Part shown: positions 6,535 through 59,921 of the stretch, piece by piece | How positions within the stretch are numbered: the first letter of the stretch is position 1 | Layout: every line of letters begins with the position of its first letter | From: Gemmatimonadota bacterium | GTDB lineage: Bacteria; Gemmatimonadota; Gemmatimonadetes; Longimicrobiales; Gaopeijiaceae | Direction of reading: 5' to 3' | Length of the DNA: 63,225 bases | Assembly: GCA_028874995.1 (NCBI GenBank) | Contig: JAPPGM010000013.1 | Coordinates: 1-63,225 of the forward strand | Made by a program: the position numbers and the translations under genes | The notes under the pieces: generated by a model | What the model was told of the DNA's origin: nothing | The model's database searches: none | What the model saw: only the letters and a program-made list of their open reading frames with translations

Positions 6535-7203
6535 ATGAACGACCGGCCGGCAAGATTCTCCGATGAGCAGGTTGCGCACATCCTGAAACGCGCGGCGGAA
6601 ATGGACGCCCGCGGGGATTTGCTAAGCGCCGAGGAACTGCGTGGCATCGCTGCCGAAGCCGGAATCGATCCCAGGGCGACGGACGCCGCGATACAGGAGT
6701 TGTTGGCGGAAGAGAAGAGCGCACCGGTGACCTCACTCAGGCCGGGATCATCCGTGGTGGAGCGGAGTCCCCAGGTTCCCGCGACGAAGACGGGCTTGTC
6801 CCTGCCCTGGCGTATCGCGGCGGGCGGAGCGGTTGGTGCGGCGTCCGGTTTCATCTATGGTTTGCCGGTCGGCGACATCCTGATAGGCGACGTGCCGCTG
6901 TTCACCGGAAACATGGTGATCGGGCTCGGTACGGTGATGCTGTACCTCATCGCCCGCGCGGTGATGAGCATGAAACGCGGCGGCCAGCGCGACTTCCAAT
7001 TCGAGAACCTCGCGGTGTGGATCGGGGCCGCATTGGTTACCATTCCCCGACTCGCCCACGTCATGCCCCTGGACGACATCCTGGCCCCGCTGATCGTCGC
7101 GTGGTTCCTCGTCTCCGTTGTCGGCGGACTCCTCGTACGCCTGGGGCGGAAAGATGAGAGCGTGTCCGACGAACCTCCGAGGATCGGGGCCGGGACAGGC
7201 TGA
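6535..7203 (+). CDS. Membrane protein with N-terminal helical domain (paralogue A)
   Basis: A 222-residue protein with a soluble helical N-terminus (FSDEQVAHILKRAAEMDARGDLLSAEELRGIAAEAGIDPRATDAAIQELL) followed by a proline-rich linker and about four membrane helices (about residues 80-185), ending in the charged motif LVRLGRKDES. The gene at 27896 has the same architecture, and a third copy survives only as a C-terminal remnant at 26356-26514. The N-terminal block resembles helical domains seen at the start of many small bacterial membrane proteins, but I cannot assign a function. Start at 6535 is chosen because homology with the paralogue starts there. Confidence 0.7.
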   Translation: MNDRPARFSDEQVAHILKRAAEMDARGDLLSAEELRGIAAEAGIDPRATDAAIQELLAEEKSAPVTSLRPGSSVVERSPQVPATKTGLSLPWRIAAGGAVGAASGFIYGLPVGDILIGDVPLFTGNMVIGLGTVMLYLIARAVMSMKRGGQRDFQFENLAVWIGAALVTIPRLAHVMPLDDILAPLIVAWFLVSVVGGLLVRLGRKDESVSDEPPRIGAGTG

Positions 7204-7256
7204 TTCGGCGGTATCCAGCACACGGACGGCCAAGGCATCCCCGTCAGGGAACTTTT

Positions 7257-7284
7257 TATATCGATTTATGATATATATTATATC
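7257..7284. promoter_or_regulatory. AT-rich overlapping palindromes upstream of the propeller/FGE gene
   Basis: Three half-sites TATATC (7257-7262), GATATA (7270-7275) and TATATC (7279-7284) form two overlapping inverted repeats with spacers of 7 and 3 bases. The stretch 7251-7296 is almost pure A/T in an otherwise GC-rich context. It lies 54 bases before the upstream candidate start of the next gene, where a promoter or operator is expected. Which regulator might bind is unknown. Confidence 0.45.
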
Positions 7285-7337
7285 TCCATAATCTGGAGAA
7301 ACAACGCCGCCGTCCACCCAAACCCGAGCTACCCCTC

Positions 7338-9620
7338 ATGCCGACGCTCCCAGCCCCACCATCGGCCGCTGACCCCATTGCCGCGTGTGCACCCCCCGCG
7401 AGGGCCACGGGCTCCGGAACGCTGATCACCAGGCGGCACGCCGACGGCGCGAGCCGACCCCGCGTGAAAGCAGGCATTCTCTTATGCGCGCTGTTCGGAG
7501 GGGTGTCCTGCGGTGCGGACCGGAGCGATGGCCGGAACGCCTTGCTCAGGCGCGACTCCGCCGGCATCGCCATCGTCGAGAACCTGGCTGGCGACCGTCC
7601 CTTCGCCGGGCGGATCGTACACGTCGCCGACCTGGCGACGCCTGACAACGCGCTGTCCCCGCGCCCATGGGGAATCGTGGCGCACCCGGCCGCGCAGCGC
7701 GTGTTCGTGGCGGACGGGGCGGGGAGGCGGATCGCCGTCTTCGATGCGGCGGGGGGGTTCGTCGGGGAACTGGGGCGGGCGGGCGAAGGTCCCGGCGAGT
7801 TCCAGCTCCCCAGCGCGCTCGCGGTGGAGGAATGCAACCGCGAATCCTGCCACGGTCTGCCCGGCCCGGCCGAAGTGCTGGTGGTGCTGGACTCGCGACG
7901 CGCTGTCCTGAGCCGCTGGTCGGCCGACGGTCAATTCCTGGGCGAGGAGCGCGCACCGGCGGACTACTGGGGACCCGGGTTCGCCGTCGGCCCCGGCCAC
8001 TTCACCTCCGTTACCTCCAGCAGCTCCTCCAGCAGCACGGGGATGGGGATCGCCCAACGGTTGGAGGTGCGCACGGCGGAGGGGAGCCGGGTTGTCCACG
8101 AAGTCTCCTACGAGATGACGCTGATGGAGCTCCCCTGCGCGACCATGCCCGCCCCGAGGATCTTCGCGCCGGAAGTGGTGTGGGCGCGCGCGGGCGACAA
8201 CTTCTACTACCTGAACGGTCCCGGCTACCGCATCGACGTCTGGTCCGATGGTGCGTCGGCGGGCAGTTTCCGCCGCCCGATCGGGCCGCTCGCGGTTTCA
8301 CGCCCGATGGCCGTGATGGCCGCCCGGACCGGTTCGGGACCGTACGGTGCGTTCATGAGGCAGTGCGGCATCTCGGCGGAGGAACTGGTCGACGCGGTGG
8401 GATACGAGGAGGAGCTGGCGCCGGTGATGGGACTGGCGGCGGATCCCGGGGGCCGGTTGTGGGTGGCCCGCAGGGGTAGCGGTCCGGCGCCCGAGGCCAT
8501 CGACATACTCGGTGCCGAAGGCGACTACCTGGGGACTCTGACCGCGGGCGTGCTTCCGGTCGCGTTCCTCTCCGCGTCGAGTTTCGTCGGCGTGCGCCTA
8601 GAATTGTCCACGGGACGGGTCCTCGCGTCGATCCATGATGTGCGGGGCGATGCGTCGCCGGTCCCGGGGCGGGATCGGGTCATACCCGGGAGGGAAGCAT
8701 CGGGGCCGCGACCGGGGGAGGAAGCTGCGCGGGACGCGGCGGACGACCTGCGGGAAGACACCGGCGCGGCACGTGCGCCCGCCCCGAACCCGGCCGGGCT
8801 GCGCGAATTCCGGGATTGCCCGGCCTGCCCGCTCATGGTCGAGCTTCCGCGCGGACGCTACATGATGGGAAGGGCGGTGGGGGAGGAGGAGCGAACGGGG
8901 CATGACAGGGACCCGAACCGGCCGCAGCGCACGCGGGACATCGAGAGACCCCGGCTCGAGGTCGATATCGCCTACCCGTTCGCCCTGGGAAAGTACGAAG
9001 TCACCTTCGACGAATGGGACCATTGCGTTGACGCAGGCGGCTGCGGCTACAGGCCCACCGATCGGGGGTTTGGCCGGGGCAACCGGCCCGTCATCCATGT
9101 TTCCCGCCTGGATGCCGAGGAATACCTGGCATGGCTCAGCGAGGCCACGGGGCAACCGTACCGGCTGCCCTCCGGCACCGAGTGGGAGTACGCCGCCCGC
9201 GCCGGCACTACCACCGCCCGCTGGTGGGGCGATGAACTGGGGACCGGAAGGGCCGTCTGCGACGGGTGCGGCAGCCGCTGGGATGATCGTTCGACCGCGC
9301 CGGTGGGCTCCTTTCCACCCAACCCGTGGGGCCTGCACGACATGCTCTCGAACGTGTCCGAGGTGGTCGCCGACTGTTGGCACGAGAGCTACGTCGGCCA
9401 CCCGACCGACGGATCGCCCCGACTGGAGGCGCCGCCGGGCTGGCCCGACGGCGAATGCAAGCGGGCCACCTGGCGAGGTGGTGCCTGGCCATTCTTCGCC
9501 TGGACGGTTCGGGCCGCAACCCGTGGCGGCGGGAACATGGATCTCGGGTATCGAGGCGATCATCCAAGGGCCGGAGGGAGTCGTGGATTTCGGGTGGCGA
9601 GGGCGGTGGAGCCGGGCTGA
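7338..9620 (+). CDS. Lipoprotein fusing a 6-bladed beta-propeller to an FGE-fold domain
   Basis: This protein has up to 760 residues. A lipobox (ILLCALFGGVSC) lies at residues 47-58; GTG at 7464 would give an ideal short lipoprotein signal and is a likely alternative start. Residues about 70-430 form a 6-bladed beta-propeller with blade motifs such as VGELGRAGEGPGEF and GLAADPGGRLWVARRG. After a low-complexity linker, residues about 490-757 match the formylglycine-generating-enzyme/sulfatase-modifying fold (ELPRGRYMMG, YPFALGKYEVTFDEWDHCV, YRLPSGTEWEYAARAG, NPWGLHDMLSNVSEVVADCW, RGGAWPFFAWTVRAATR, SRGFRVAR). The cysteines that FGE uses near RGGSW are absent, so oxidase activity is unlikely. 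I infer an extracytoplasmic binding role. Confidence 0.85.
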   Translation: MPTLPAPPSAADPIAACAPPARATGSGTLITRRHADGASRPRVKAGILLCALFGGVSCGADRSDGRNALLRRDSAGIAIVENLAGDRPFAGRIVHVADLATPDNALSPRPWGIVAHPAAQRVFVADGAGRRIAVFDAAGGFVGELGRAGEGPGEFQLPSALAVEECNRESCHGLPGPAEVLVVLDSRRAVLSRWSADGQFLGEERAPADYWGPGFAVGPGHFTSVTSSSSSSSTGMGIAQRLEVRTAEGSRVVHEVSYEMTLMELPCATMPAPRIFAPEVVWARAGDNFYYLNGPGYRIDVWSDGASAGSFRRPIGPLAVSRPMAVMAARTGSGPYGAFMRQCGISAEELVDAVGYEEELAPVMGLAADPGGRLWVARRGSGPAPEAIDILGAEGDYLGTLTAGVLPVAFLSASSFVGVRLELSTGRVLASIHDVRGDASPVPGRDRVIPGREASGPRPGEEAARDAADDLREDTGAARAPAPNPAGLREFRDCPACPLMVELPRGRYMMGRAVGEEERTGHDRDPNRPQRTRDIERPRLEVDIAYPFALGKYEVTFDEWDHCVDAGGCGYRPTDRGFGRGNRPVIHVSRLDAEEYLAWLSEATGQPYRLPSGTEWEYAARAGTTTARWWGDELGTGRAVCDGCGSRWDDRSTAPVGSFPPNPWGLHDMLSNVSEVVADCWHESYVGHPTDGSPRLEAPPGWPDGECKRATWRGGAWPFFAWTVRAATRGGGNMDLGYRGDHPRAGGSRGFRVARAVEPG

Positions 9621-9629
9621 GGCAGTATT

Positions 9630-9663
9630 TTGTATGCCACTACGGGACGATAGTGGCCGACAA
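9630..9663. repeat. 34-bp palindromic element, copy 1
   Basis: This is the most diverged copy: left arm TTGTATGCCACTA, an 8-base loop, right arm TAGTGGCCGACAA. It starts 9 bases after the stop of the propeller/FGE gene and is followed 17 bases later by copy 2. It has the same 34-bp length and centre as the other five copies. Confidence 0.75.
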
Positions 9664-9680
9664 CCGCCGATTTGGCGGGC

Positions 9681-9714
9681 TTGTCCGCCACTTCTGGCCG
9701 AAAGTGGCAGACAA
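9681..9714. repeat. 34-bp palindromic element, copy 2
   Basis: Left arm TTGTCCGCCACTT, right arm AAGTGGCAGACAA, 8-base loop. Between copies 1 and 2 is a further small hairpin, CCGCC/GGCGG at 9664-9678. No T-run follows, so it is not a standard intrinsic terminator. Confidence 0.85.
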
Positions 9715-9777
9715 GACTCGCACTTGCGGTCGAGAGACCCCCTCCCTCCGCCAAGAGTCACACATCTGATCGAAATC

Positions 9778-9824
9778 TTGACATTGGGTGTTGTGCGGCT
9801 ATACTCTGGAATATAGAGTACTCT
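9778..9824 (+). promoter_or_regulatory. Near-consensus sigma-70 promoter with overlapping palindromes
   Basis: TTGACA (9778-9783) and TATACT (9800-9805) are separated by 16 bases, a strong housekeeping-type promoter. An inverted repeat ACTCT (9803-9807) N7 AGAGT (9815-9819) overlaps the -10 element, and AGAGTACTCT (9815-9824) is itself a perfect palindrome. Position and symmetry suggest an operator that blocks polymerase. The winged-helix regulator encoded two genes downstream is the obvious candidate, by inference only. Confidence 0.65.
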
Positions 9825-9872
9825 GTAGTCGCAAGATGAGTCAACCAGGAAACCAGAAGGAAACCCAACACC

Positions 9873-10478
9873 ATGCCCGACCCCACCCCGACCGCCCGCC
9901 CGGAAGACGACCTCGCCTTCATCCGCCGCGTCATGGAGGGCGCGCGGGAGACCGCTTCGGATGGCAGCGGCCACCTCATCCTCTGGGGTTGCCTGCTGGC
10001 GACCGCCCAGACACTGACCTATCTGGTCCGCCAGGGTGAGATGGCCGTCTCGGTCACCGTCATCTGGGCCGTGACGGTCGGAGTCGGCTTCGCCGGCTCG
10101 TCCCTCCTCGGAAACCGCAACCTGAAGCGGGCGCCGGTCAACTCACTGGTGAACCGGATTCTGTCGTCGATCTGGATCGGATGCGGGCTTTCCCTGTCAC
10201 TCATCGGCTTCCTCGGCCAGGGTTTCGGGGCCCTGCCGCACCAGGTCGCGCCCGGAATCGAGGCCGTTGTCATCGGCACTTCGTTCTTTGCCTCGGCGAT
10301 GCTTCCCAACCACGCGATCTACTGGCTGCTCGCGGCCGCGTGGTGGACCCTCGGAGGCGCGCTGCTGGTCCGGCCGTCTCCGGTATCGAACCTGGTGATC
10401 GCCTGCGGGCTGGTCCTGTTGATGGTGTTGCCGGGGGTGGTGCTCAGGGCCCGGCGCCGAGTCCACCTCGTCGCATGA
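9873..10478 (+). CDS. Multi-pass membrane protein, hypothetical
   Basis: A 201-residue protein with a soluble N-terminus (DDLAFIRRVMEGARETAS) and six predicted membrane helices from about residue 33 to 193, ending in RARRRVHL. AAGGAAA precedes the start by about 10 bases. Its stop overlaps the start of the winged-helix gene (ATGA), a sign of translational coupling. Membrane proteins paired this way with a small winged-helix regulator are common, and the pair may act as sensor and regulator, but the sequence itself shows no ligand site. Confidence 0.75.
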   Translation: MPDPTPTARPEDDLAFIRRVMEGARETASDGSGHLILWGCLLATAQTLTYLVRQGEMAVSVTVIWAVTVGVGFAGSSLLGNRNLKRAPVNSLVNRILSSIWIGCGLSLSLIGFLGQGFGALPHQVAPGIEAVVIGTSFFASAMLPNHAIYWLLAAAWWTLGGALLVRPSPVSNLVIACGLVLLMVLPGVVLRARRRVHLVA

Positions 10479-10804
10479 AGACCTACGACTACCGCCAGTT
10501 CGACCCGCTCGTCCACTCGCGAATCCGGCTTTCGGTGCTGGCCATCCTCGTCAGTGTCGACGACGCCGAATTCACCTACCTGCGCGACCAGGTCCGCGCC
10601 ACCGACGGCAACCTCGGCGCGCACCTGCGCAAGCTCGAGGACGGCGGATACGTGCAGGTGACCAAGCACTTCGTGAATCGGAAGCCCCACACGCGGTACC
10701 GCGTCACCCAGGCCGGGCGGGACGCGTTCCGCAAGTACGTGGACAACCTGGAGCGGTTGCTGCATTCGGCGCCGAAGGACCTCGAAGGGAAGGCGGCTGG
10801 GTGA
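10475..10804 (+). CDS. Winged-helix transcriptional regulator (HTH_34-like)
   Basis: This 109-residue protein is almost entirely one winged-helix domain: FDPLVHSRIRLSVLAILVSVDDAEFTYLRDQV (helices 1-2), ATDGNLGAHLRKLEDGGYVQVTK (recognition helix) and HTRYRVTQAGRDAFRKYVDNLERLL (wing and final helix). This pattern matches the small MarR/ArsR-like group that senses through a membrane partner or a small ligand. It overlaps the upstream membrane-protein gene by 4 bases, and the downstream TonB-dependent receptor starts one base after its stop, so all are likely on one transcript. It may act at the palindromes over the promoter at 9778-9824. Confidence 0.88.
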   Translation: MKTYDYRQFDPLVHSRIRLSVLAILVSVDDAEFTYLRDQVRATDGNLGAHLRKLEDGGYVQVTKHFVNRKPHTRYRVTQAGRDAFRKYVDNLERLLHSAPKDLEGKAAG

Positions 10805-10805
10805 G

Positions 10806-13019
10806 GTGGTGATCCGCGACAAAGGCGTGCGTGCCGCCGTTTGCCTGGCAGGGCTCGCGACATTCCTATCACCGCTTGGGCTCGCCGGCCAGGACCCCTC
10901 CGCCGTCACCGGCAGTGTCCGCGATCTTGCAGGCCGTCCACTCGCCGGTGCGGACGCCTTCCTCCTGGAGACCCTCGAAGGCGCCCCCACGGACTCGGCG
11001 GGCGTCTTCCGTTTCGCTTCCGACAGGAGAGGCCAGGCAACGCTGGTGGTTCAGCAAGCCGGCTATCTCGAAGTCCGCCGCACCGTCGAGCTGCCCCTCT
11101 CCGGCCCCGTCTCGGTCACGATGCAGCTGGCCCCCGTCACCCTCGAAGCCATCACGGTCGAAGCGGGAACCTACCGGCTCGGAAACCTTCCGGACGTAAC
11201 GCTGGACGAACTGGAAGTCGTTCGAACACCGGGCGCCGCGGCCGATCCCTTCCGTGCGATTCAGACCTTCCCGGGACTGCAGAGCGTGGGCGAGGGGGCG
11301 GGGCTGTTCGTGCGCGGCGGCGATCTCTCCGAGACCCGGGTGCTGCTCGACGGCGCGACGGTTCTCTCACCCTTTCGCCTCGACACCGACCGCACCATAT
11401 CGTTCGGCCGCTTCGACCCCTTCGCGCTACGGGGTATCCAGTTCTCGGCGGGCGGTTTCGGCGCGGAGTACGGAGACGCGCTATCGGCGGTCGCCGACCT
11501 CGAGAGCGTCGACAAGCCGGCCGAGAGCGAATTCGGCGTGACGGCCGCCATCGGGGCCCTGTCGGCGGGGCTGTACCTCGATCTGTCGGAGACGGCGGGG
11601 CTGCGCGTGACGGCAACGCGCACCGACACCGGGCTGCTGATGCGCATGACGGGAAGGAGGGACGAGTTCGACGAAGTCCCCCGGTCCAGCGACCTCAGCG
11701 GCGGCGGGCAGTGGATGTACCGCGAAGGAGGCGCCCTCAAGGCCTTCGGGCTCGTTCAGACGGACCACGTCGGGGTGCGGATCGACGACCCCGGGCATTC
11801 CGGCATCTACCGCTCCGACGGGCGCGCCGACCTCTTCTCGCTGTCCGGTCTCGAAGACTTCGGCGGACCCGGCGTATCGTGGGGGTTGGCGACCAGCGGT
11901 TCGCGCAAGGACGAGGACTTCGGCGCCTTCCGGCTGGAGCGCGAGGACCGGCTCGCCCAGGCGCGCGCAAAGGTCGAAGTGCCGCTGGCGCGCGGCGCCT
12001 CGCTGGCGGCGGGGACCGAGCTGGAGCACCGCACCGCCGACCTCACGGGATCGATCCCCACCCGTGCGCACGACAACGCGCCCGGTGCGTCCACCACTAT
12101 CTTCTCCAGCGACGAGTCCGGCACGCGCCTCGGAGCCTTCGGCGAAATCGAACTCCAGCCCTCGAACGCACTCCGGTTCCAACTGGGAATGCGCGCCGAC
12201 CGCTCCACCTTCACCGGACGCGTCACCGCCGACCCCCGCCTGTCCGCCTCCTGGCGCCCCGCCGGACACCTCACCCTGACCGCCGCGTGGGGCGTGTATC
12301 ACCAGGTCCCCGATCCCCTGCTCTACGCGCCGGCGGTGGGAGATCCCACGCTGCCGTCCATGTCCGCCCGCCATCTCATCGGCGGCGCGACCTGGGACGA
12401 CGGGACGCGCCTCATCCGCGTCGAGGCTTATCGCAAGCGCTACGATGCGCTCGCGGCACGAACCCGCGACGGCCTCACCCGCGGAGGCGGAACCGGCACG
12501 GCCACGGGGGTCGACCTCTTCGCCAAGGAGGAGTTCGCCCTCCTGGGCCTGGACGGACGCATCGCCTACAGCTTCATCCGCTCCGAGCGCACGGACCCGG
12601 ACAGCGGCGACCTGGCGCCGTCGCCCTTCGACGTGACCCACACCCTCAACGTCGTGCTCAACCGCGGCTTCGGCGGCTGGTTGGAGACCGGCGTCGCCTA
12701 CCGCGCCGCAACCGGTGCCCCCTTCACACCCGTTCTCGCCGCGACCTTCGACCCGGACCGCAACCTGTGGCACCCGGTCCATGGAGCGCCCATGTCCGAG
12801 CGGCTGCCCATGCACACCCGGCTCGATCTTTCCGCGACCGTACTCAGGAGCTTCTGGGCCGACAACCTCACCGTCTTCTTCGTCTCGATCATGAACTCGC
12901 TCGACCGGTCGAATGTGCGCGACTACCGCTACAGCACCGACTACTCCGAGCGCATCCCCCTCAGGACCCCGTTCCCCCGCACCATCTACTTCGGGGTGAC
13001 GACAAACTTTCCCTTCTGA
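10806..13019 (+). CDS. TonB-dependent outer-membrane receptor with carboxypeptidase-regulatory domain
   Basis: A 737-residue receptor starting at one of two adjacent GTG codons (10806 or 10809). A signal peptide (to about LGLAGQ) is followed by a carboxypeptidase-regulatory-like beta-sandwich (VTGSVRDLAGRPLAGADAFL ... GVFRFASD), the plug domain (LQSVGEGAGLFVRGGDLSETRVLLDGATV, GGFGAEYGDALSAV) and a barrel that ends in an aromatic residue (YFGVTTNFPF). Such receptors import large ligands, driven by TonB. The cargo is unknown. At about 740 residues it is close to the usual size. It lies in a row with the winged-helix regulator upstream and a TPR protein 23 bases downstream. Confidence 0.9.
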   Translation: MVIRDKGVRAAVCLAGLATFLSPLGLAGQDPSAVTGSVRDLAGRPLAGADAFLLETLEGAPTDSAGVFRFASDRRGQATLVVQQAGYLEVRRTVELPLSGPVSVTMQLAPVTLEAITVEAGTYRLGNLPDVTLDELEVVRTPGAAADPFRAIQTFPGLQSVGEGAGLFVRGGDLSETRVLLDGATVLSPFRLDTDRTISFGRFDPFALRGIQFSAGGFGAEYGDALSAVADLESVDKPAESEFGVTAAIGALSAGLYLDLSETAGLRVTATRTDTGLLMRMTGRRDEFDEVPRSSDLSGGGQWMYREGGALKAFGLVQTDHVGVRIDDPGHSGIYRSDGRADLFSLSGLEDFGGPGVSWGLATSGSRKDEDFGAFRLEREDRLAQARAKVEVPLARGASLAAGTELEHRTADLTGSIPTRAHDNAPGASTTIFSSDESGTRLGAFGEIELQPSNALRFQLGMRADRSTFTGRVTADPRLSASWRPAGHLTLTAAWGVYHQVPDPLLYAPAVGDPTLPSMSARHLIGGATWDDGTRLIRVEAYRKRYDALAARTRDGLTRGGGTGTATGVDLFAKEEFALLGLDGRIAYSFIRSERTDPDSGDLAPSPFDVTHTLNVVLNRGFGGWLETGVAYRAATGAPFTPVLAATFDPDRNLWHPVHGAPMSERLPMHTRLDLSATVLRSFWADNLTVFFVSIMNSLDRSNVRDYRYSTDYSERIPLRTPFPRTIYFGVTTNFPF

Positions 13020-32018: not shown

Positions 32019-33254
32019 CTACTGCCGTTCCAGCGCCACCAGCCTGGTCACCCGCACTCTCTGAACCCCCACCTCGTCGGCCTCGATGTAGGCCATGAGC
32101 CCATCGGGACCGAACGCGTCCGGGATCGCGAGCCCGCCGCCCGGCAGCGTCCCCAGGTAGTCCCCGTCCGCGGTCAGAATGTCGGTCAGCGCATCGCCGC
32201 CAATCTCGGTGGGAGAGCGAGTGATCCAGAACCGGCCCTCCGGGTCCACGGCCATACCGGCCAGGACCGGAATCTCGTCCGCGAAGACCATGGTCTCGAC
32301 CTGTTTCATGAAGGTCTCGCGGAACTGGGCCGCCTCGGCGCTGGACATCTGCTGTCCCATGAAGCCGAGACCCGAGGAGTAGCTGTACTCTTCGATGCGC
32401 AGTGCTCTCGTGGCCTCCTTGATCTCCTCCGTCACCACCAAGGGTGCGATGGGCCTGCCGAAGGTTCCGGTCACGTTTCCATCGGTGTCGATGAGCTTCA
32501 CTTCGTAGGTGGTCGAGTCCGCGACCGCGAGCCGGCCATCCGCGTGGACGGCCAGGTGGAGCCCGGGCTCGAAGGCGCGCAGCCGGTTGATGGTCATCTC
32601 CTGCCGTCCCTGCTCGTTTTCGACGGTCACCTCGACATCCGTGGGCGGGAGGTCCCATGCCCTGTACAGGACTCGCGTGTCGTCCCCGGCCAGCGAGAAG
32701 ACGTGGATATCGCGCCGGTAGTCCGGTTCCTCATCGGACGAGGGGAAGCTGAACCGGGGCCCGCCGGTGGACACCAGACGGCCATCCGGCAATGGAAGCA
32801 GAAGACGCCCGGGTGCGCCCTGCATGACGTCGACCGTCACGCCCCTCTCGAATGCGCCCACCGCGTCGTAGATCTCGAAGGTGCCGGGGCGGCCCATGTC
32901 GAAGACGACCGTGCGCCGGTCGCGAAGGACGGTGAAGCCGAAGGGCCACTGCCATTCACCCGGTCCCTCGCCCTGCCCGCCGAAGGTGCGGAGGTGGCCA
33001 CCGTCGGCATCGACGACGACGACCCGATGGCTCTGACCATCGAAGATCGAGAGTTCGCCGGCGGCGTTGAACGCGACCGCACCGACCCCCCCGAAGGTCT
33101 CCCATTCCTCTCCGGCGCTTGCGCCGACCGTGTAGATGTCCTCGGTCGTGGCGGTCAGGGGTGCGTCCACGGCCGGGTCGGCGGGGGCGGCGCCGCGGTC
33201 GCAGGCGTGGGAGATGGGTAAGACGGCGGTAAGAGCGAGGAGGCGGAGGTGCAT
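32019..33254 (-). CDS. 6-bladed beta-propeller lipoprotein
   Basis: A 411-residue protein with a lipoprotein-type leader (LRLLALTAVLPISHAC). Propeller blades are marked by EDIYTVGASAGEEWETFGGVGAVAFNAAGELSIFD, HLRTFGGQGEGPGEWQWPFGF, GRLAVADSTTYEVKLIDTDG and MAVDPEGRFWITR. The GxxGEGPGE motif is the family signature seen in the other propellers here. Such proteins are uncharacterised; the fold suggests binding of a ligand or protein outside the cytoplasm. AAAGGA precedes the start. It is divergent from the TlpA-like gene at 33497, with 242 bases between. Confidence 0.85.
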   Translation of the reverse strand: MHLRLLALTAVLPISHACDRGAAPADPAVDAPLTATTEDIYTVGASAGEEWETFGGVGAVAFNAAGELSIFDGQSHRVVVVDADGGHLRTFGGQGEGPGEWQWPFGFTVLRDRRTVVFDMGRPGTFEIYDAVGAFERGVTVDVMQGAPGRLLLPLPDGRLVSTGGPRFSFPSSDEEPDYRRDIHVFSLAGDDTRVLYRAWDLPPTDVEVTVENEQGRQEMTINRLRAFEPGLHLAVHADGRLAVADSTTYEVKLIDTDGNVTGTFGRPIAPLVVTEEIKEATRALRIEEYSYSSGLGFMGQQMSSAEAAQFRETFMKQVETMVFADEIPVLAGMAVDPEGRFWITRSPTEIGGDALTDILTADGDYLGTLPGGGLAIPDAFGPDGLMAYIEADEVGVQRVRVTRLVALERQ

Positions 33255-45370: not shown

Positions 45371-46555
45371 TCAGGGACGCCGGATCAAGTATCGAACCAG
45401 GTACGGGACATCGAGTTCGTCGCGCTCGACGAACCACAGCGATTCCGCGTCCGCCCACCTTATGCTGCCTCGCGGCGGCGGATCGGCGCGCGCAACGGTA
45501 TGGCCGGACTCGTCCAGCACTTCCCACTCGGACGATTCGACGCCCGTGCGGAGGAGGAGCCAGGTCGTGCCGTCCGTCCCGGCCTGTACGTCGCCGACGG
45601 GTGGGAAGAACTCCAACCTGCCGAATGCCCTCTCCCACACCTGCCGAACGCGGCCTGGGGGAAAACCGCGAAACTCCCCGAAATCGTGGACATACTCCTC
45701 CACGTGCCGCGTCCGCCACTCCCGGGGCACGGGGATTGGATCGTACGGGACCTCGTGCGCCCACGCGGTGTCCGCCCGGGCGTCGAACCGGATCACGCGA
45801 AACGTGTGCGGTTCGGCACTCGTGGCGCCGGTGCGGTGCACCACGACGAATCCCGACCCGTCCGGCGCGACCGAAAGCAGCGAGCGGTACGACTCGGGAA
45901 TGGACACATAACTGGTCCAACCGCTCCCGACAAATTGCGTGATGCCGCTGCGCCCGACGATCATGGCCACCGTGTCCCACGGCAGCCCCTCGGGATCGAC
46001 CAGGACCACAGCCTCCGGCTTCGGCGGAGATTCGACCAACTCGCCCGCCGACACCGTGTGCTTGAAGAGCCGGGATCCATCCTGAAGCACTCCCTGCACC
46101 GTCGCCCCAAGCAAAGCCGGGTGGCCCTCGATCCGCTCCGATGAGACGAGGCGGCCTTCGGCGTCAAAGTACTGGAGGCGTCGCGAGCCCGAATCGATCC
46201 ACATCCGACCATCGTGCAGGCCCATGGAGCCCACATTCCGGAACTCTCCCGGTCCTTCTCCACCGCGGCCGATGAACCCGAGGAAGTCCCCGGTTAAGGA
46301 GAAGACCCGGACGCGCCGCTCCAAGTCTTGCGTTACAAGCAGCCGGTCGCCCAGGACAATCACGTCTCCCACCCGAGTGAGCCCCGTTTCCGGATCGAAC
46401 GCATCGCCAATCGTGACCGTGCGCTCCAGCGTCCACCGCTCGACCTGAGCGGTGCCGGGGTACGGCGAAGCTGCGACAAGGCACGAGCAGCCGAGTACCG
46501 CCCCCGCCAGGGTGGCCAGCCGGGGACCCGCTCCGGCGATCTCAGATCGTGACAT
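45371..46555 (-). CDS. 6-bladed beta-propeller protein, exported
   Basis: A 394-residue protein with a leader LATLAGAVLGCSCLVAASPYPGTAQ that could be a lipobox or a simple cleavage site. Blades are marked by GDVIVLGDRLLVTQDLERRVRVFSLTGDFLGFIGRGGEGPGEF, GRMWIDSGSRRLQYFD and TDGTTWLLLRTGVE, ending in ESLWFVERDELDVPYLVRYLI. It diverges from the other propellers in the N-terminal blades and has extra Arg-rich loops. It stands between the lipoprotein at 44706 and the cupin gene, all on the minus strand. Confidence 0.82.
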   Translation of the reverse strand: MSRSEIAGAGPRLATLAGAVLGCSCLVAASPYPGTAQVERWTLERTVTIGDAFDPETGLTRVGDVIVLGDRLLVTQDLERRVRVFSLTGDFLGFIGRGGEGPGEFRNVGSMGLHDGRMWIDSGSRRLQYFDAEGRLVSSERIEGHPALLGATVQGVLQDGSRLFKHTVSAGELVESPPKPEAVVLVDPEGLPWDTVAMIVGRSGITQFVGSGWTSYVSIPESYRSLLSVAPDGSGFVVVHRTGATSAEPHTFRVIRFDARADTAWAHEVPYDPIPVPREWRTRHVEEYVHDFGEFRGFPPGRVRQVWERAFGRLEFFPPVGDVQAGTDGTTWLLLRTGVESSEWEVLDESGHTVARADPPPRGSIRWADAESLWFVERDELDVPYLVRYLIRRP

Positions 46556-50065: not shown

Positions 50066-51139
50066 ATGGCACTCGCCGCTTGCGCCGCGATGGCGCTTAC
50101 AGCGGCGTGCGGGCCGGAGGACGACCCCCAAGAGACATTCGTCGCCCTGGAACCCTCAGCCGAATCAACAGCGCCGCTCAGCGAGAGCAACGGGATCGCA
50201 GTCACTCCGGAAGGGATCGCATGCGTCATCGATTCCTTCGAGATTCGCATCTACTGCGCGGACCGGGACGGCCGAACGGTCGGCTATTTCGGAAGAGAGG
50301 GAGACGGTCCCGGCGAGTTCATCGGTCTCACCTCGATCGATCGGGCACCGGACGGCGGGATCGTCGTCGTGGACATGGAGCGCGGTCGCCTTCTGTCGTT
50401 TCGCCCAACGGGGGAATTGTTGTCGGAGTCGAAGGCCCCGGCCGCCTTCATACCTACCGGGCGCATCGCCGGTTCGCTGTTTGGCAAGGCGTTGGTTTCC
50501 GATGAGAACGTCGAGGTCGACATCGCGTCGGGAGACATCACGTGGAGCAGAAAATACCCGCGTCCCGATGGTCTGGACGCTCCGGCATGCGTAGAAAACC
50601 AATTCGCATGGCTGGACTTCGGGATTCCGACCCCTCGGGGAGGCATGCTGTTTCGAGCCTGCCGGGGGCAGCTTCTGATCTGGTACGCCGATCGCGACGA
50701 CGACGCGCCCGCTGAAGTGGCTGTGGTGCCCACCTACAGGAGAAAGCTGCCGCGAGAAGCCGAGGTCGAGAGCTACATTCGGGGCTTGACCCGCTTGGCC
50801 GGCGGCGCCGCTCCTTCCGCTTCCGACGTGGAAGCGTTCAGGAACAGGCCGCGGAACTGGCACACGTACCGCGCTCGGTTCGATAGCAAGGGGAGGGCAT
50901 GGATGGCGACCAGGCGGGGCGCGGGCGACTTCTCATACATCGACGTGCACGACGGGGTCGCCTACCTCGGCACGGTTCGGGTACAGCATTCCCTGATCGG
51001 CATGGACATCACCGGGTCGGTTCTTGTCGTCCTGGTCGACCGGCCGGTTCGCTCGGACGATGCCACCGGGATTCCTCAGCGCGGAATTGACTGGTATGAC
51101 ATCGTAGATCTGGAGTCTACCGACCCCGCGCCCCACTGA
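50066..51139 (+). CDS. 6-bladed beta-propeller lipoprotein
   Basis: A 357-residue protein from ATG 50066; the frame is open to 49967 but that stretch looks non-coding. The leader LAACAAMALTAAC is a lipobox. Blades include GIAVTPEGIACVIDSFEIRIYCADRDGRTVGYFGREGDGPGEF, GGIVVVDMERGRLLSFRPTGELL and RFDSKGRAWMATRRG. It is shorter than its relatives and has lost the usual final strand motif. It follows the metalloprotease by 100 bases in the same direction and precedes another propeller gene. Confidence 0.8.
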   Translation: MALAACAAMALTAACGPEDDPQETFVALEPSAESTAPLSESNGIAVTPEGIACVIDSFEIRIYCADRDGRTVGYFGREGDGPGEFIGLTSIDRAPDGGIVVVDMERGRLLSFRPTGELLSESKAPAAFIPTGRIAGSLFGKALVSDENVEVDIASGDITWSRKYPRPDGLDAPACVENQFAWLDFGIPTPRGGMLFRACRGQLLIWYADRDDDAPAEVAVVPTYRRKLPREAEVESYIRGLTRLAGGAAPSASDVEAFRNRPRNWHTYRARFDSKGRAWMATRRGAGDFSYIDVHDGVAYLGTVRVQHSLIGMDITGSVLVVLVDRPVRSDDATGIPQRGIDWYDIVDLESTDPAPH

Positions 51140-51364: not shown

Positions 51365-52576
51365 ATGAGCCGGAGAACATGGGTCGCACTTGCCAAATCG
51401 ACCTTGCTCTTGGTAGCCGACCCGGTGAGTGCTCAAGAGATCATCGAAATGCCAGGCGAAGACCGTTGGCTGGAGCCCGACTTCGAAGAGGTGTACAGTG
51501 TGGGGTCGCTGCAGGGTGGTGAATGGGATTCCTTCGGCAGGGTGGCTCACGTGGCATTCGATGGTGAGGGCAACCTGCAGATCTTCGACACCCAGGCGCT
51601 ACGTATCTCCGTGGTCGACCAGACAGGGAAATTGCTCCATCAGTTCGGCCGATCCGGCGAGGGTCCCGGCGAGTTCGTCGGCGGTGCCTCGCCCAGAATG
51701 ACCGTGCTTACCGACGGTCGCACGGTCATTTTCGACTCTGGCAATTTCAGCTTCAACGTCTACACCCCTCAGGGAGAGTTCGAGAGGCTGGTCCGTTTTG
51801 GCGACGGCACCAGCTTCGTCTTCCTTCCGACTTTGCAGGCCGAGCGGGATGCCGATGCCGTTCTCGCAACGACTCTCGTCGTGCTGGTCCCGGTGCCGGC
51901 TGAGGCTGCTGAGTCCGAATCCGGCCTGCGACCCGTCCAACGACTGCTTCTGAGCGGTGAGGAAGTCGTCATGGAGACGGCTGGCCGGGGATGGGCCCCT
52001 CTGGGCAAGGGCGCCCGTGGCTTCGCACCTGCTTTTGCGGCCGGCTCGCTCCCAGATGGTGGGGTAGCGCTGACCGATTCATCCGGCTACGCAATCAGGA
52101 TCTTCACCCCCGATGGCGAACTGGCCCGGATACTCAAGAGACCGTTCTACCCGGAGCCGGCGACAGAGGGCGCAATAGAGGCAGAAAGGGAACGCGTGCT
52201 GGCAGAGGCGATAGGGATACTCGGGCCAACTGCTGACCAGGCCGTCGGGCAGGCGGCGGAGATACTCAGGCAGGGACTCGAACGCGAGCGCAACAGGATC
52301 CAATCGATGGGATTTCACGAGGAGATTCCCGTCATCCGTGCCCTGAAGACCAGCTGGGATGGGTCGATATGGGTCCAGCGCCGTGGAGAGGAGCCATCCG
52401 GCGATGGTCCCATTGACGTGCTTACCCCGGATGGGGTGTACCTTGGCACCTACGCGGCAGACGCCATTGAAATGCCCGCTGCGTTTGGTCCGGAGGGGCT
52501 GGTCGCGTTCATAGAGACGAACGACCTCGGGGTCAACACGGTCGTCGTGAAGCGGTCGCCGCCTGAGGTACGATAG
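51365..52576 (+). CDS. 6-bladed beta-propeller protein, exported
   Basis: A 403-residue protein with GGAAGGAG just before its ATG and a signal peptide cleaved near [16 protein letters not shown]. The N-terminus [51 protein letters not shown] and the [13 protein letters not shown] blade are nearly shared with the propeller at 58683 ([23 protein letters not shown]), so these two are close paralogues. The C-terminal blades are [34 protein letters not shown] and [26 protein letters not shown]. Confidence 0.85.
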
Positions 52577-58682: not shown

Positions 58683-59921
58683 GTGAGACGGCGAACCGTG
58701 AACGTGAGACCGATTGAAGGGATTCTCTTTCTGGCCGCCTTGGTGGCGGCTGCTCCGGCAACCGCCCAGGAAATCATCAACCTGCCCGCCGAAGACCGCC
58801 CGCTGATCCCGGACTTCGAAGAGCTCTACCGGGTCGGGTCGGTATCGGGCGGGGATTGGGAACAGTTCGGAAACGTGCGCCGCGTGGGGTTTGATGGCGC
58901 TGGTCGGCTTTACGTGTTCGACAGTGAGGCGGACCAGGTCACCGTCGTCGGGCCGGACGGCGAGTTCCTCTGGGCCTTCGGTCGTTCGGGAGAAGGTCCG
59001 GGGGAATTTCGCCACGCTGACGGACTCGCGATCATGCGGGACGGGCGCGCCGTGTTGGCGGACGCCGGGCACCGTGCCTACCACATCTTCGGCGCGGACG
59101 GCAGTTTCGAGCGAATGGTGCGGATGGTCGCCGAACCGGGTGAAGTGACCATCACCGATCTTCTGCCCGATCCCGGTGGCGAGGCCATCTTTTCCGCGGT
59201 GGGGGCACAGACTCTGTCGGCCAGCGGTGCCGAAAGGGGGCGCACTGCCCGGCACACGTCTCGGCCGGTGGAACGCATCACGATCACCGGGGAGGAGGCT
59301 GCAAAGGATACGGTCGCAGAGGGCTGGCTCCCCCCTGCGAAGACCAGGTCGGGCTTGCCGTGGCCGGTTCAGGTGTTCGGACCGTTGATGTTGACCGGAG
59401 TACTCCCGGACGGAGGCGTGGCATTCTCCGACTCGTCGGCCTACGCCATCAAGATTGCGCGGCCGGGAGCTGGAGTCTGGCGAGTTCTGAAGCGGCCATT
59501 CCATCCGATCCGCGTAACGAACCGGGTGATGAAGGTCGAAACGGAGCGTCGAATCAGGAGAACGGAGTCGCGCGGTGTGCCACCAATAATCATCAACGGC
59601 GAGAACGTAAATGAGGACAGCCCCCGGGAATGGGTGATGGGTCTAATCGATCTGTTGGGCTTCTTCGACGAAGTTTCGATCGTTCGGGGACTCAGAACCA
59701 ACTGGGATGGCGAGATCTGGGTGCGGCGCCACGGCGAGGAACCCGGTGACGATGACGGCCCCATCGACGTCCTGACCATGCACGGACGCTACATCGGCAC
59801 CTACCCCGTGGGTGAGGTCGCGTTGCCGGCCGCTTTCGGGCCGGATGGCCTGGTCGCGTTCATCGAGAGGGACGAAATGGATGTCCGGCACGTCGTGGTG
59901 AAGCGTCAGCGGGGGCGGTGA
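58683..59921 (+). CDS. 6-bladed beta-propeller protein, exported
   Basis: A 412-residue protein; GTG 58683 or the in-frame GTGs at 58698 and 58704 may be the start. The signal peptide ends at [16 protein letters not shown]. Blades include [100 protein letters not shown] and [26 protein letters not shown]. It is a close paralogue of the protein at 51365. Confidence 0.87.

What the first reader, a model, noticed from the sequence alone, without database searches (positions are those of the whole stretch)
7338..9620. Beta-propeller fused to an FGE-fold domain without catalytic cysteines
The propeller family is plentiful here, but only this copy carries a C-terminal FGE-type domain. The segment RGGAWPFFAWTVRAATR lacks the Cys residues used by formylglycine-generating enzyme. 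The fused protein may be a surface or periplasmic binding protein in which the FGE fold acts as a ligand-binding domain.
Basis: partly seen in the sequence, partly recalled or inferred. Interest (0 to 1): 0.5.

Follow-up and report, generated by a model that had tools for sequence, protein, structure and literature searches.

The report
Propeller–FGE lipoprotein lacking catalytic cysteines
A predicted bacterial envelope protein joins a beta-propeller to a relative of formylglycine-generating enzyme that lacks that enzyme's catalytic cysteines; the pairing is conserved in many relatives, often beside a regulator and two membrane proteins, which suggests a sensor rather than an accident.

Summary
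One open frame (7338–9620) encodes an NHL/6-bladed-type propeller (PF17170) plus an FGE-fold domain (PF03781, 129.8 bits); the catalytic-cysteine loop has no cysteine. It is no frameshift or assembly artefact: full-length orthologues occur in 11 of 23 genomes of the genus, in two other genera of the family and in another family of the class. Lacking those cysteines is ordinary: 2 of 69 aligned FGE domains carry any Cys there. The domain is PvdO-like (Z 33.9).

New: in 24 of 35 fusion loci read, the gene sits beside a trio: a PadR regulator, a membrane protein with a HAAS-like prefix, and a short MotA/ExbB-like protein. Gene order varies. In four genomes the MotA-like segment is in frame with propeller–FGE; in two loci propeller and FGE are separate genes flanking the trio. 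In the window's genome the trio lies on another contig, behind an unfused propeller lipoprotein gene; both genes have a similar A+T-rich upstream stretch.

Best reading: an envelope-anchored periplasmic receptor of a PadR–membrane signalling module. Ligand, signalling and PadR control are inferred, not shown. Rivals: PvdO-like oxidase, PorK-like docking part, plain binding protein.

The parts
7338..9620 (+). propeller–FGE lipoprotein gene (760 aa from ATG 7338; 718 aa if the start is GTG 7464)
   Evidence: orthologues
7241..7306 (+). A+T-rich stretch (one of four in the window with at least 72% A+T over 40 bases) with TGATATATATTATATC at 7269–7284; resembles stretches before trio operons of relatives; candidate promoter/operator
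7464..7511 (+). predicted type II (lipoprotein) signal peptide MKAGILLCALFGGVSC; lipobox Cys at 7509–7511
   Evidence: Cys invariant in 18 of 18 rows
7551..8648 (+). NHL-type propeller, residues 72–437 (blades not counted; the Pfam family is called 6-bladed)
   Evidence: (ten-residue pLDDT means 66–94)
8649..8789 (+). variable linker, residues 438–484
8790..9617 (+). FGE-fold (PvdO-like) domain, residues 485–760, with eight invariant Cys that may form disulfides
   Evidence: (pLDDT 93.9 for 8784–9617)
9474..9524 (+). former FGE catalytic loop RGGAWPFFAWTVRAATR; no Cys; Trp722 invariant in all 32 fusion rows examined

Best explanation
The gene makes an envelope-anchored, periplasm-facing lipoprotein in which a propeller and an FGE-fold domain without the FGE catalytic cysteines together form a receptor. 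In most fusion loci read it is one part of a locus that also encodes a PadR-type regulator, a membrane protein with a HAAS-like helical prefix, and a MotA/ExbB-like membrane protein. The most likely mechanism is that propeller–FGE binds an envelope or environmental ligand, the signal passes through the MotA-like and the prefix-bearing membrane protein, and PadR is released from an A+T-rich promoter. In the window's genome the trio lies on another contig behind an unfused propeller lipoprotein gene, and both that operon and the window gene have a similar A+T-rich stretch upstream, so the two could form one PadR regulon. Shown: architecture, conservation, loss of the catalytic Cys, linkage of the genes, in-frame joining to the MotA-like segment in four genomes. 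Inferred: lipidation, topology, ligand binding, signal flow, PadR control.
For: Orthologous fusions in many genomes. 24 of 35 fusion loci read have all three partner genes beside them, in three arrangements: trio then fusion, fusion then trio, divergent. Propeller and FGE as separate genes flank the trio in L055 (G009) and L067 (G011:C81). In L043, L045, L046 and L047 the MotA-like segment and propeller–FGE share one open frame; L046 and L047 have no ATG/GTG/TTG between TM3 and the propeller, L045 only a TTG after the lipobox Cys, L043 a GTG inside TM3 and an ATG two codons before the Cys. All 24 fused FGE rows fall, with nine others, in one clade of 33 of 87 rows at 100/100. Upstream stretches: trio operons of relatives, the propeller gene that heads the trio in the own genome and in four relatives (5 of 5 looked at), and the window gene all carry a GATATA-type or very similar A+T-rich stretch. 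In print, HAAS–PadR pairs are proposed as an alternative to two-component systems (PMC11237479, passages seen), and FGE-type C-type-lectin folds serve as ligand-binding domains (PMC5006420, passages seen). The own genome also has an M56/BlaR1-type membrane peptidase with a C-terminal FGE domain.
Against: The window itself holds none of the three partners. G018 and G031 (94–95% complete) carry the fusion but no membrane-partner match at E 0.001. Partner presence does not track the fusion in the genus: 9 of 11 genomes with the fusion, 8 of 12 without. HAAS is not met by Pfam (3 of 20 members, best E 0.091), and MotA_ExbB passes its cut-off in 1 of 5 proteins, with no match for the own-genome copy. 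The own-genome trio has its own unfused propeller, so the fused protein may not work with it. Many linked loci are close relatives, so linkage is partly shared descent. The exact promoter pattern was drawn from these same sequences, and 23 of 100 shuffles of the window give a match at up to 2 mismatches; in L041 and L042 (G018, G031) no such stretch was seen before the fusion gene.
Confidence: 0.45

Rival explanations
1. The FGE domain is a PvdO-like periplasmic oxidoreductase that acts on a small molecule or peptide, and the propeller positions it or supplies the substrate.
For: Closest solved structure is PvdO by sequence (E 1.9e-28; 1.1e-82) and by fold (Z 33.9, rmsd 1.8 over 242 residues). 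PvdO is required for the last oxidation of dihydropyoverdine in the periplasm (PMC6206403, passages seen). The domain is conserved, dN/dS 0.09–0.41 over eight pairs.
Against: Far below the PvdO equivalog cut-off (129.2 against 500 bits). Purified PvdO had no detectable cofactor and was inactive, so I had no catalytic residue to test. The repeated neighbours are a regulator and membrane proteins; the neighbourhoods were not fully annotated, so a biosynthetic cluster is not excluded.
Confidence: 0.2
2. The lipoprotein is a structural docking part, as PorK/GldK are, moved or tensioned by the MotA-like protein using the proton gradient.
For: PorK has an FGE-like domain without the catalytic Cys that serves as a docking hub in a proton-driven machine (PMC12421860, passages seen). 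Fold match to PorK Z 27.0. A MotA/ExbB-like protein is encoded beside the gene, or in frame with it in four genomes.
Against: GldK model 48.4 against a cut-off of 350 bits. PorK's large insertion has no room in a 278-residue domain (inferred from length). The MotA-like protein is short and weakly matched. A MotB/ExbD-like partner was not searched for.
Confidence: 0.12
3. A plain binding lipoprotein: one of the many propeller lipoproteins that gained a lectin-like domain, with no regulatory link.
For: 117 PF17170 matches in this genome. The fusion persists without a detectable membrane partner in G018 and G031. In the window the gene stands without the trio.
Against: Repeated linkage to the same three genes in two families and three gene orders, in-frame joining to the MotA-like segment, and similar upstream stretches.
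Confidence: 0.2

Closest known systems
PvdO (pyoverdine maturation; PDB 5hha)
   Same: FGE fold, DCxxCP start, DCWH..Y.G.P.DGS...C region, periplasmic; Z 33.9, 38% identity over 242 residues
   Different: PvdO belongs to the pyoverdine pathway; here the domain sits at the C-end of a propeller lipoprotein; PvdO equivalog cut-off not met
Formylglycine-generating enzyme (SUMF1 / bacterial FGE)
   Same: fold (5nyy, Z 27.6)
   Different: both catalytic Cys missing in 32 of 32 fusion rows; loop three residues shorter in the profile alignment
PorK/GldK of the type IX secretion system
   Same: FGE-like fold without the catalytic Cys in a lipoprotein (PMC12421860; names); fold Z 27.0
   Different: GldK cut-off not met; PorK's large insertion missing (inferred from length); no propeller in PorK/GldK (recalled)
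HAAS–PadR signalling pairs
   Same: in relatives, a PadR-type regulator gene (81.8 and 85.8 bits) directly followed by a membrane protein with a helical prefix, beside candidate sensor genes
   Different: prefix not confirmed as HAAS; the passages seen of PMC11237479 name no propeller–FGE or MotA-like partner
FGE-subclass C-type-lectin ligand-binding domains (Mtd, TvpA)
   Same: same fold subclass used for ligand binding, with a nonvariable aromatic at the base of the site (PMC5006420, passages); TvpA 2y3c Z 27.6; here Trp722 is invariant in the former catalytic loop (whether the two places coincide was not tested)
   Different: those proteins are diversified by retroelements; here both domains are under purifying selection; no reverse transcriptase was searched for

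Membership tests
PF03781 FGE-sulfatase superfamily | profile score over the curated cut-off, FGE fold | tested here: met
   129.8 against 23.3 bits; AF2 pLDDT 93.9; Z 27.6 to FGE, 33.9 to PvdO
Formylglycine-generating enzyme (catalytic) | pair of active-site cysteines in the loop after RGGS | tested here: not met
   no Cys in the loop in the window or in 32 of 32 fusion rows
PF17170 6-bladed propeller | profile score over the curated cut-off | tested here: met
   26.3 against 22.9 bits
PF17170 6-bladed propeller | six blades | tested here: inconclusive
   model matches NHL propellers (Foldseek E 2.1e-11); blades were not counted
Bacterial lipoprotein | hydrophobic signal with lipobox Cys | tested here: met
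   by motif only: Cys invariant in 18 of 18 after a hydrophobic stretch; no signal-peptide predictor was available
PvdO equivalog (NF051459) | curated cut-off 500 bits | tested here: not met
   129.2 bits
GldK/PorK (TIGR03525) | curated cut-off 350 bits | tested here: not met
   48.4 bits
HAAS–PadR system | PadR wHTH gene coupled to a HAAS-domain protein | tested here: inconclusive
   PadR 81.8 and 85.8 bits in relatives; HAAS in 3 of 20 membrane partners, best E 0.091, the one shown 11.7 against a cut-off of 27 bits; neither is in the window
MotA/TolQ/ExbB (PF01618) | curated cut-off 22.9 bits | tested here: inconclusive
   five proteins: 24.8, 21.6, 18.8, 16.7 bits, and no match in the fifth, the window genome's own copy; the L043 segment 16.5 bits
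DGR variable protein | hypervariable codons plus template repeat and reverse transcriptase | not tested
   no search made

The most novel reading that the evidence does not exclude
A new kind of transmembrane signalling: a MotA/ExbB-type membrane protein, coupled to or even in frame with a periplasmic propeller–FGE receptor, passes an envelope signal through a HAAS-like membrane adaptor to a PadR repressor, so that a proton-channel-type subunit serves as a signal relay instead of a motor.
Probability: 0.2. Interest if true: 0.75.

Novelty: new variant of a known kind. Interest (0 to 1): 0.45.

Why it matters
FGE-fold domains without the catalytic cysteines are common and many have no known function. 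This one comes with strong context: a conserved partner domain, fission and fusion variants, and a recurring regulator-plus-membrane locus. That makes a sensor role directly testable. It also ties part of the large propeller-lipoprotein expansion of this genome (117 matches) to PadR-type regulators, and it adds a possible use of a MotA/ExbB-like protein outside motors.

Tried and rejected
Frameshift or assembly artefact: rejected. Missing Cys as a special feature: rejected, since 2 of 69 aligned FGE rows (8 of the 69 from fused proteins) have any Cys in the loop; the rows were picked by likeness to this domain, so this says nothing of true FGEs. First structure job on the whole protein: propeller good, FGE half poor (ten-residue pLDDT means 21–66) with 18 close rows; a second job on the FGE part with 69 rows succeeded. 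G011:C41 (L048) nests inside the other family in the membrane-protein tree and may be contamination (6%) or transfer; it is counted among the 24 of 35. HAAS identity could not be established. The FGE tree used 24 of 32 fusion rows (seven f7 rows dropped by me to thin that family, L232 lost by my motif filter); its bootstrap had not settled; two of the nine other rows in its clade (G119, G045) have no trio near. The 63 'broad' FGE rows include L025, the same protein as L057, and the second FGE domain of the fused G003 protein. dN/dS: in five of eight pairs (L045–L047, and two pairs of the second genus) FGE ratios (0.20–0.41) are not lower than propeller ratios (0.16–0.22), so 'FGE more constrained' holds only for the three comparisons around the window. 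While checking this report I found that an earlier conclusion, that the own-genome trio lacks the A+T-rich stretch, was wrong: I had looked before PadR, but the stretch lies before the propeller gene that heads that operon. Odds left as they were. Papers: three searches on the fusion or on propellers in these bacteria (15 of 25, 10 of 132 and 10 of 20 papers listed) and one on propeller, PadR, FGE and MotA/TolQ/ExbB terms (1 of 1) listed nothing that, by title and abstract start, describes this fusion or locus; none of these listed papers was read, and the library holds open-licence papers only. The PvdO mutant paper itself is not held.

Full report
What is there. The frame 7338–9620 is one gene of 760 codons. 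Residues 99–206 match the propeller family PF17170 and residues 497–733 the FGE superfamily PF03781. A GTG at 7464 would begin a classic lipoprotein signal (MKAGILLCALFGGVSC); the Cys is invariant in 18 of 18 aligned rows. The ATG at 7338 has a counterpart at the same place in the closest relative, L038, so the start is open. An AF2 model gives a confident propeller that matches NHL propellers. A separate model of the FGE part from 69 sequences has mean pLDDT 93.9; it aligns to PvdO with Z 33.9 and rmsd 1.8 over 242 residues, to FGE (5nyy) with Z 27.6, to the lectin-like TvpA (2y3c) with Z 27.6 and to PorK (9mzu) with Z 27.0.

The missing cysteines. The FGE loop with both catalytic cysteines aligns to RGGAWPFFAWTVRAATR, which has none. 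None of 32 fusion rows has a Cys there; a Trp (residue 722) is invariant in 32 of 32 but present in 16 of 63 other FGE rows. In the 69-row alignment only two rows have any Cys in that loop, so lack of the pair is normal among the relatives sampled.

Not an artefact. In the genus the full fusion is found in 11 of 23 genomes, own included (one, G017, is cut by two contig ends), in seven genomes of a second genus of the family (G001, G003, G005, G006, G007, G008, and G011, whose fused copy may be contamination; an interrupted copy in G002), in G044 of a third genus, and in 14 genomes of another family of the class, one of them (G171) cut by a contig end (121 and 395 genomes searched, overlapping sets). 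Two genomes of the window's genus, G031 and G020, have the same contig coordinates for their matches as the genomes of the Gemmatimonadota MAGs RHO1_bin_51 and jk18x27bins.47, so I infer that the window is from a Gemmatimonadota bacterium. dN/dS (NG86) among the window and its two closest relatives is 0.09–0.12 in the FGE part, 0.20–0.33 in the propeller and 0.46–0.60 in the linker; over all eight pairs computed both domains stay at or below 0.41.

The locus. Around the orthologues I found a recurring trio: a PadR regulator (PF03551), a membrane protein of about 240–295 residues with a helical prefix that resembles HAAS by eye but not by Pfam, and a short protein with weak MotA/ExbB similarity. 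Of 35 fusion loci read that have one open frame (20, one, 14), 24 have all three beside them. Of the other 11, L044 ends at a contig end and its other half (L118) carries the trio; L222 and L231 are cut by contig ends (L222 with a MotA-like remnant); the window, L038, L039, L041, L042, L053, L057 and L232 lack it. The interrupted copy of G002 (L068) has the trio but is not among the 35. Orders differ: trio then fusion (L043, L045–L048 and the other family), fusion then trio (L049–L052, L054, L056, L066), divergent (L040). In L055 (G009) and L067 (G011:C81) a propeller gene, the trio and a separate FGE gene with its own lipoprotein-like signal lie in a row on one strand. In four genomes the MotA-like segment and the propeller–FGE part are one open frame of 836–843 codons.

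The window's version. Upstream of the fusion the window has the same M20-peptidase and c3 genes as the trio-bearing relatives L043 and L045–L047, but no trio anywhere in its 63 kb. The A+T-rich stretch 7241–7306, one of four such in the window, resembles the one before the trio in those relatives. The simplest account is loss of the trio from between promoter and fusion gene; this is inference. The genome keeps one membrane-partner homologue, on contig C79, with PadR and the MotA-like gene and an unfused propeller lipoprotein gene 76 bases upstream. Before that propeller gene lies a similar stretch (TTTGCGACATAAAGATCTGTGATATATC), as in four relatives with the same arrangement. So gene and trio may answer to the same PadR in trans. 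In G033, a single-contig genome, fusion and trio lie about 1.5 Mb apart, so the separation is real.

Mechanism. I favour a sensor: a periplasm-facing propeller–FGE receptor feeding a PadR-controlled circuit through two membrane proteins. The FGE-type fold is used elsewhere for ligand binding (PMC5006420, passages) and, without the catalytic cysteines, as a docking hub (PMC12421860, passages); HAAS–PadR pairs are proposed as signal systems (PMC11237479, passages). In this genome an M56/BlaR1-type membrane peptidase also ends in an FGE domain; that BlaR1 has its sensor there is recalled. A PvdO-like oxidation is the main rival, because PvdO is the nearest solved relative and its own chemistry is unresolved (PMC6206403, passages). 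Nothing here shows a ligand, a signal or PadR binding.

Against the reading. Two genomes have the fusion without a detectable membrane partner (G018, G031) and no such upstream stretch was seen there, and the partner's presence in the genus does not follow the fusion (9 of 11 with, 8 of 12 without). The linkage is partly shared descent. HAAS and MotA assignments are weak. The exact operator pattern is post hoc, and its chance rate in the window is not negligible at two mismatches.

Verdict. Observation right, the missing cysteines ordinary, interpretation partly right but incomplete. The value lies in the recurring locus and in the fission and fusion variants, which make this a new variant of known kinds and a testable sensor candidate.

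Noticed in passing
whole genome; in the window 32112–33083 (-), 46133–46423 (-), 50225–50449 (+), 51533–52486 (+), 58884–59837 (+): Large expansion of propeller genes: 117 PF17170 matches in the genome, five more matches in the window besides the fusion.
   Followed up: partly
L063 (G000:C110) 4587–2617 (-): M56/BlaR1-type peptidase with a C-terminal FGE domain, next to a propeller gene.
   Followed up: partly
L061 (G000:C79) 9472–6722 (-), and 9787–11603 (+): Own-genome trio preceded by an unfused propeller lipoprotein gene with an A+T-rich stretch before it, and a BlaI-type/M56 pair divergently beside it.
   Followed up: yes
L054 (G003:C114), frame of 1010 codons: Propeller followed by two FGE domains in one open frame, plus a further FGE gene after the trio.
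   Followed up: partly
window 9873–10801: Membrane-protein-like gene followed by an HTH_34 winged-helix regulator, directly downstream of the fusion and before a TonB-receptor-like gene (last name by eye); another regulator–membrane pair.
   Followed up: no
window 9630–9715: Two hairpins right after the stop codon; parts recur elsewhere in the genome (eight further matches), a REP-like dispersed repeat.
   Followed up: partly
window 6535–7203: Small membrane-protein-like gene between the M20 peptidase and the fusion, with no Pfam match and no match in the 20 relative loci searched.
   Followed up: partly
L048 (G011:C41): This copy groups with another family in the membrane-partner tree: contamination or horizontal transfer.
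   Followed up: no
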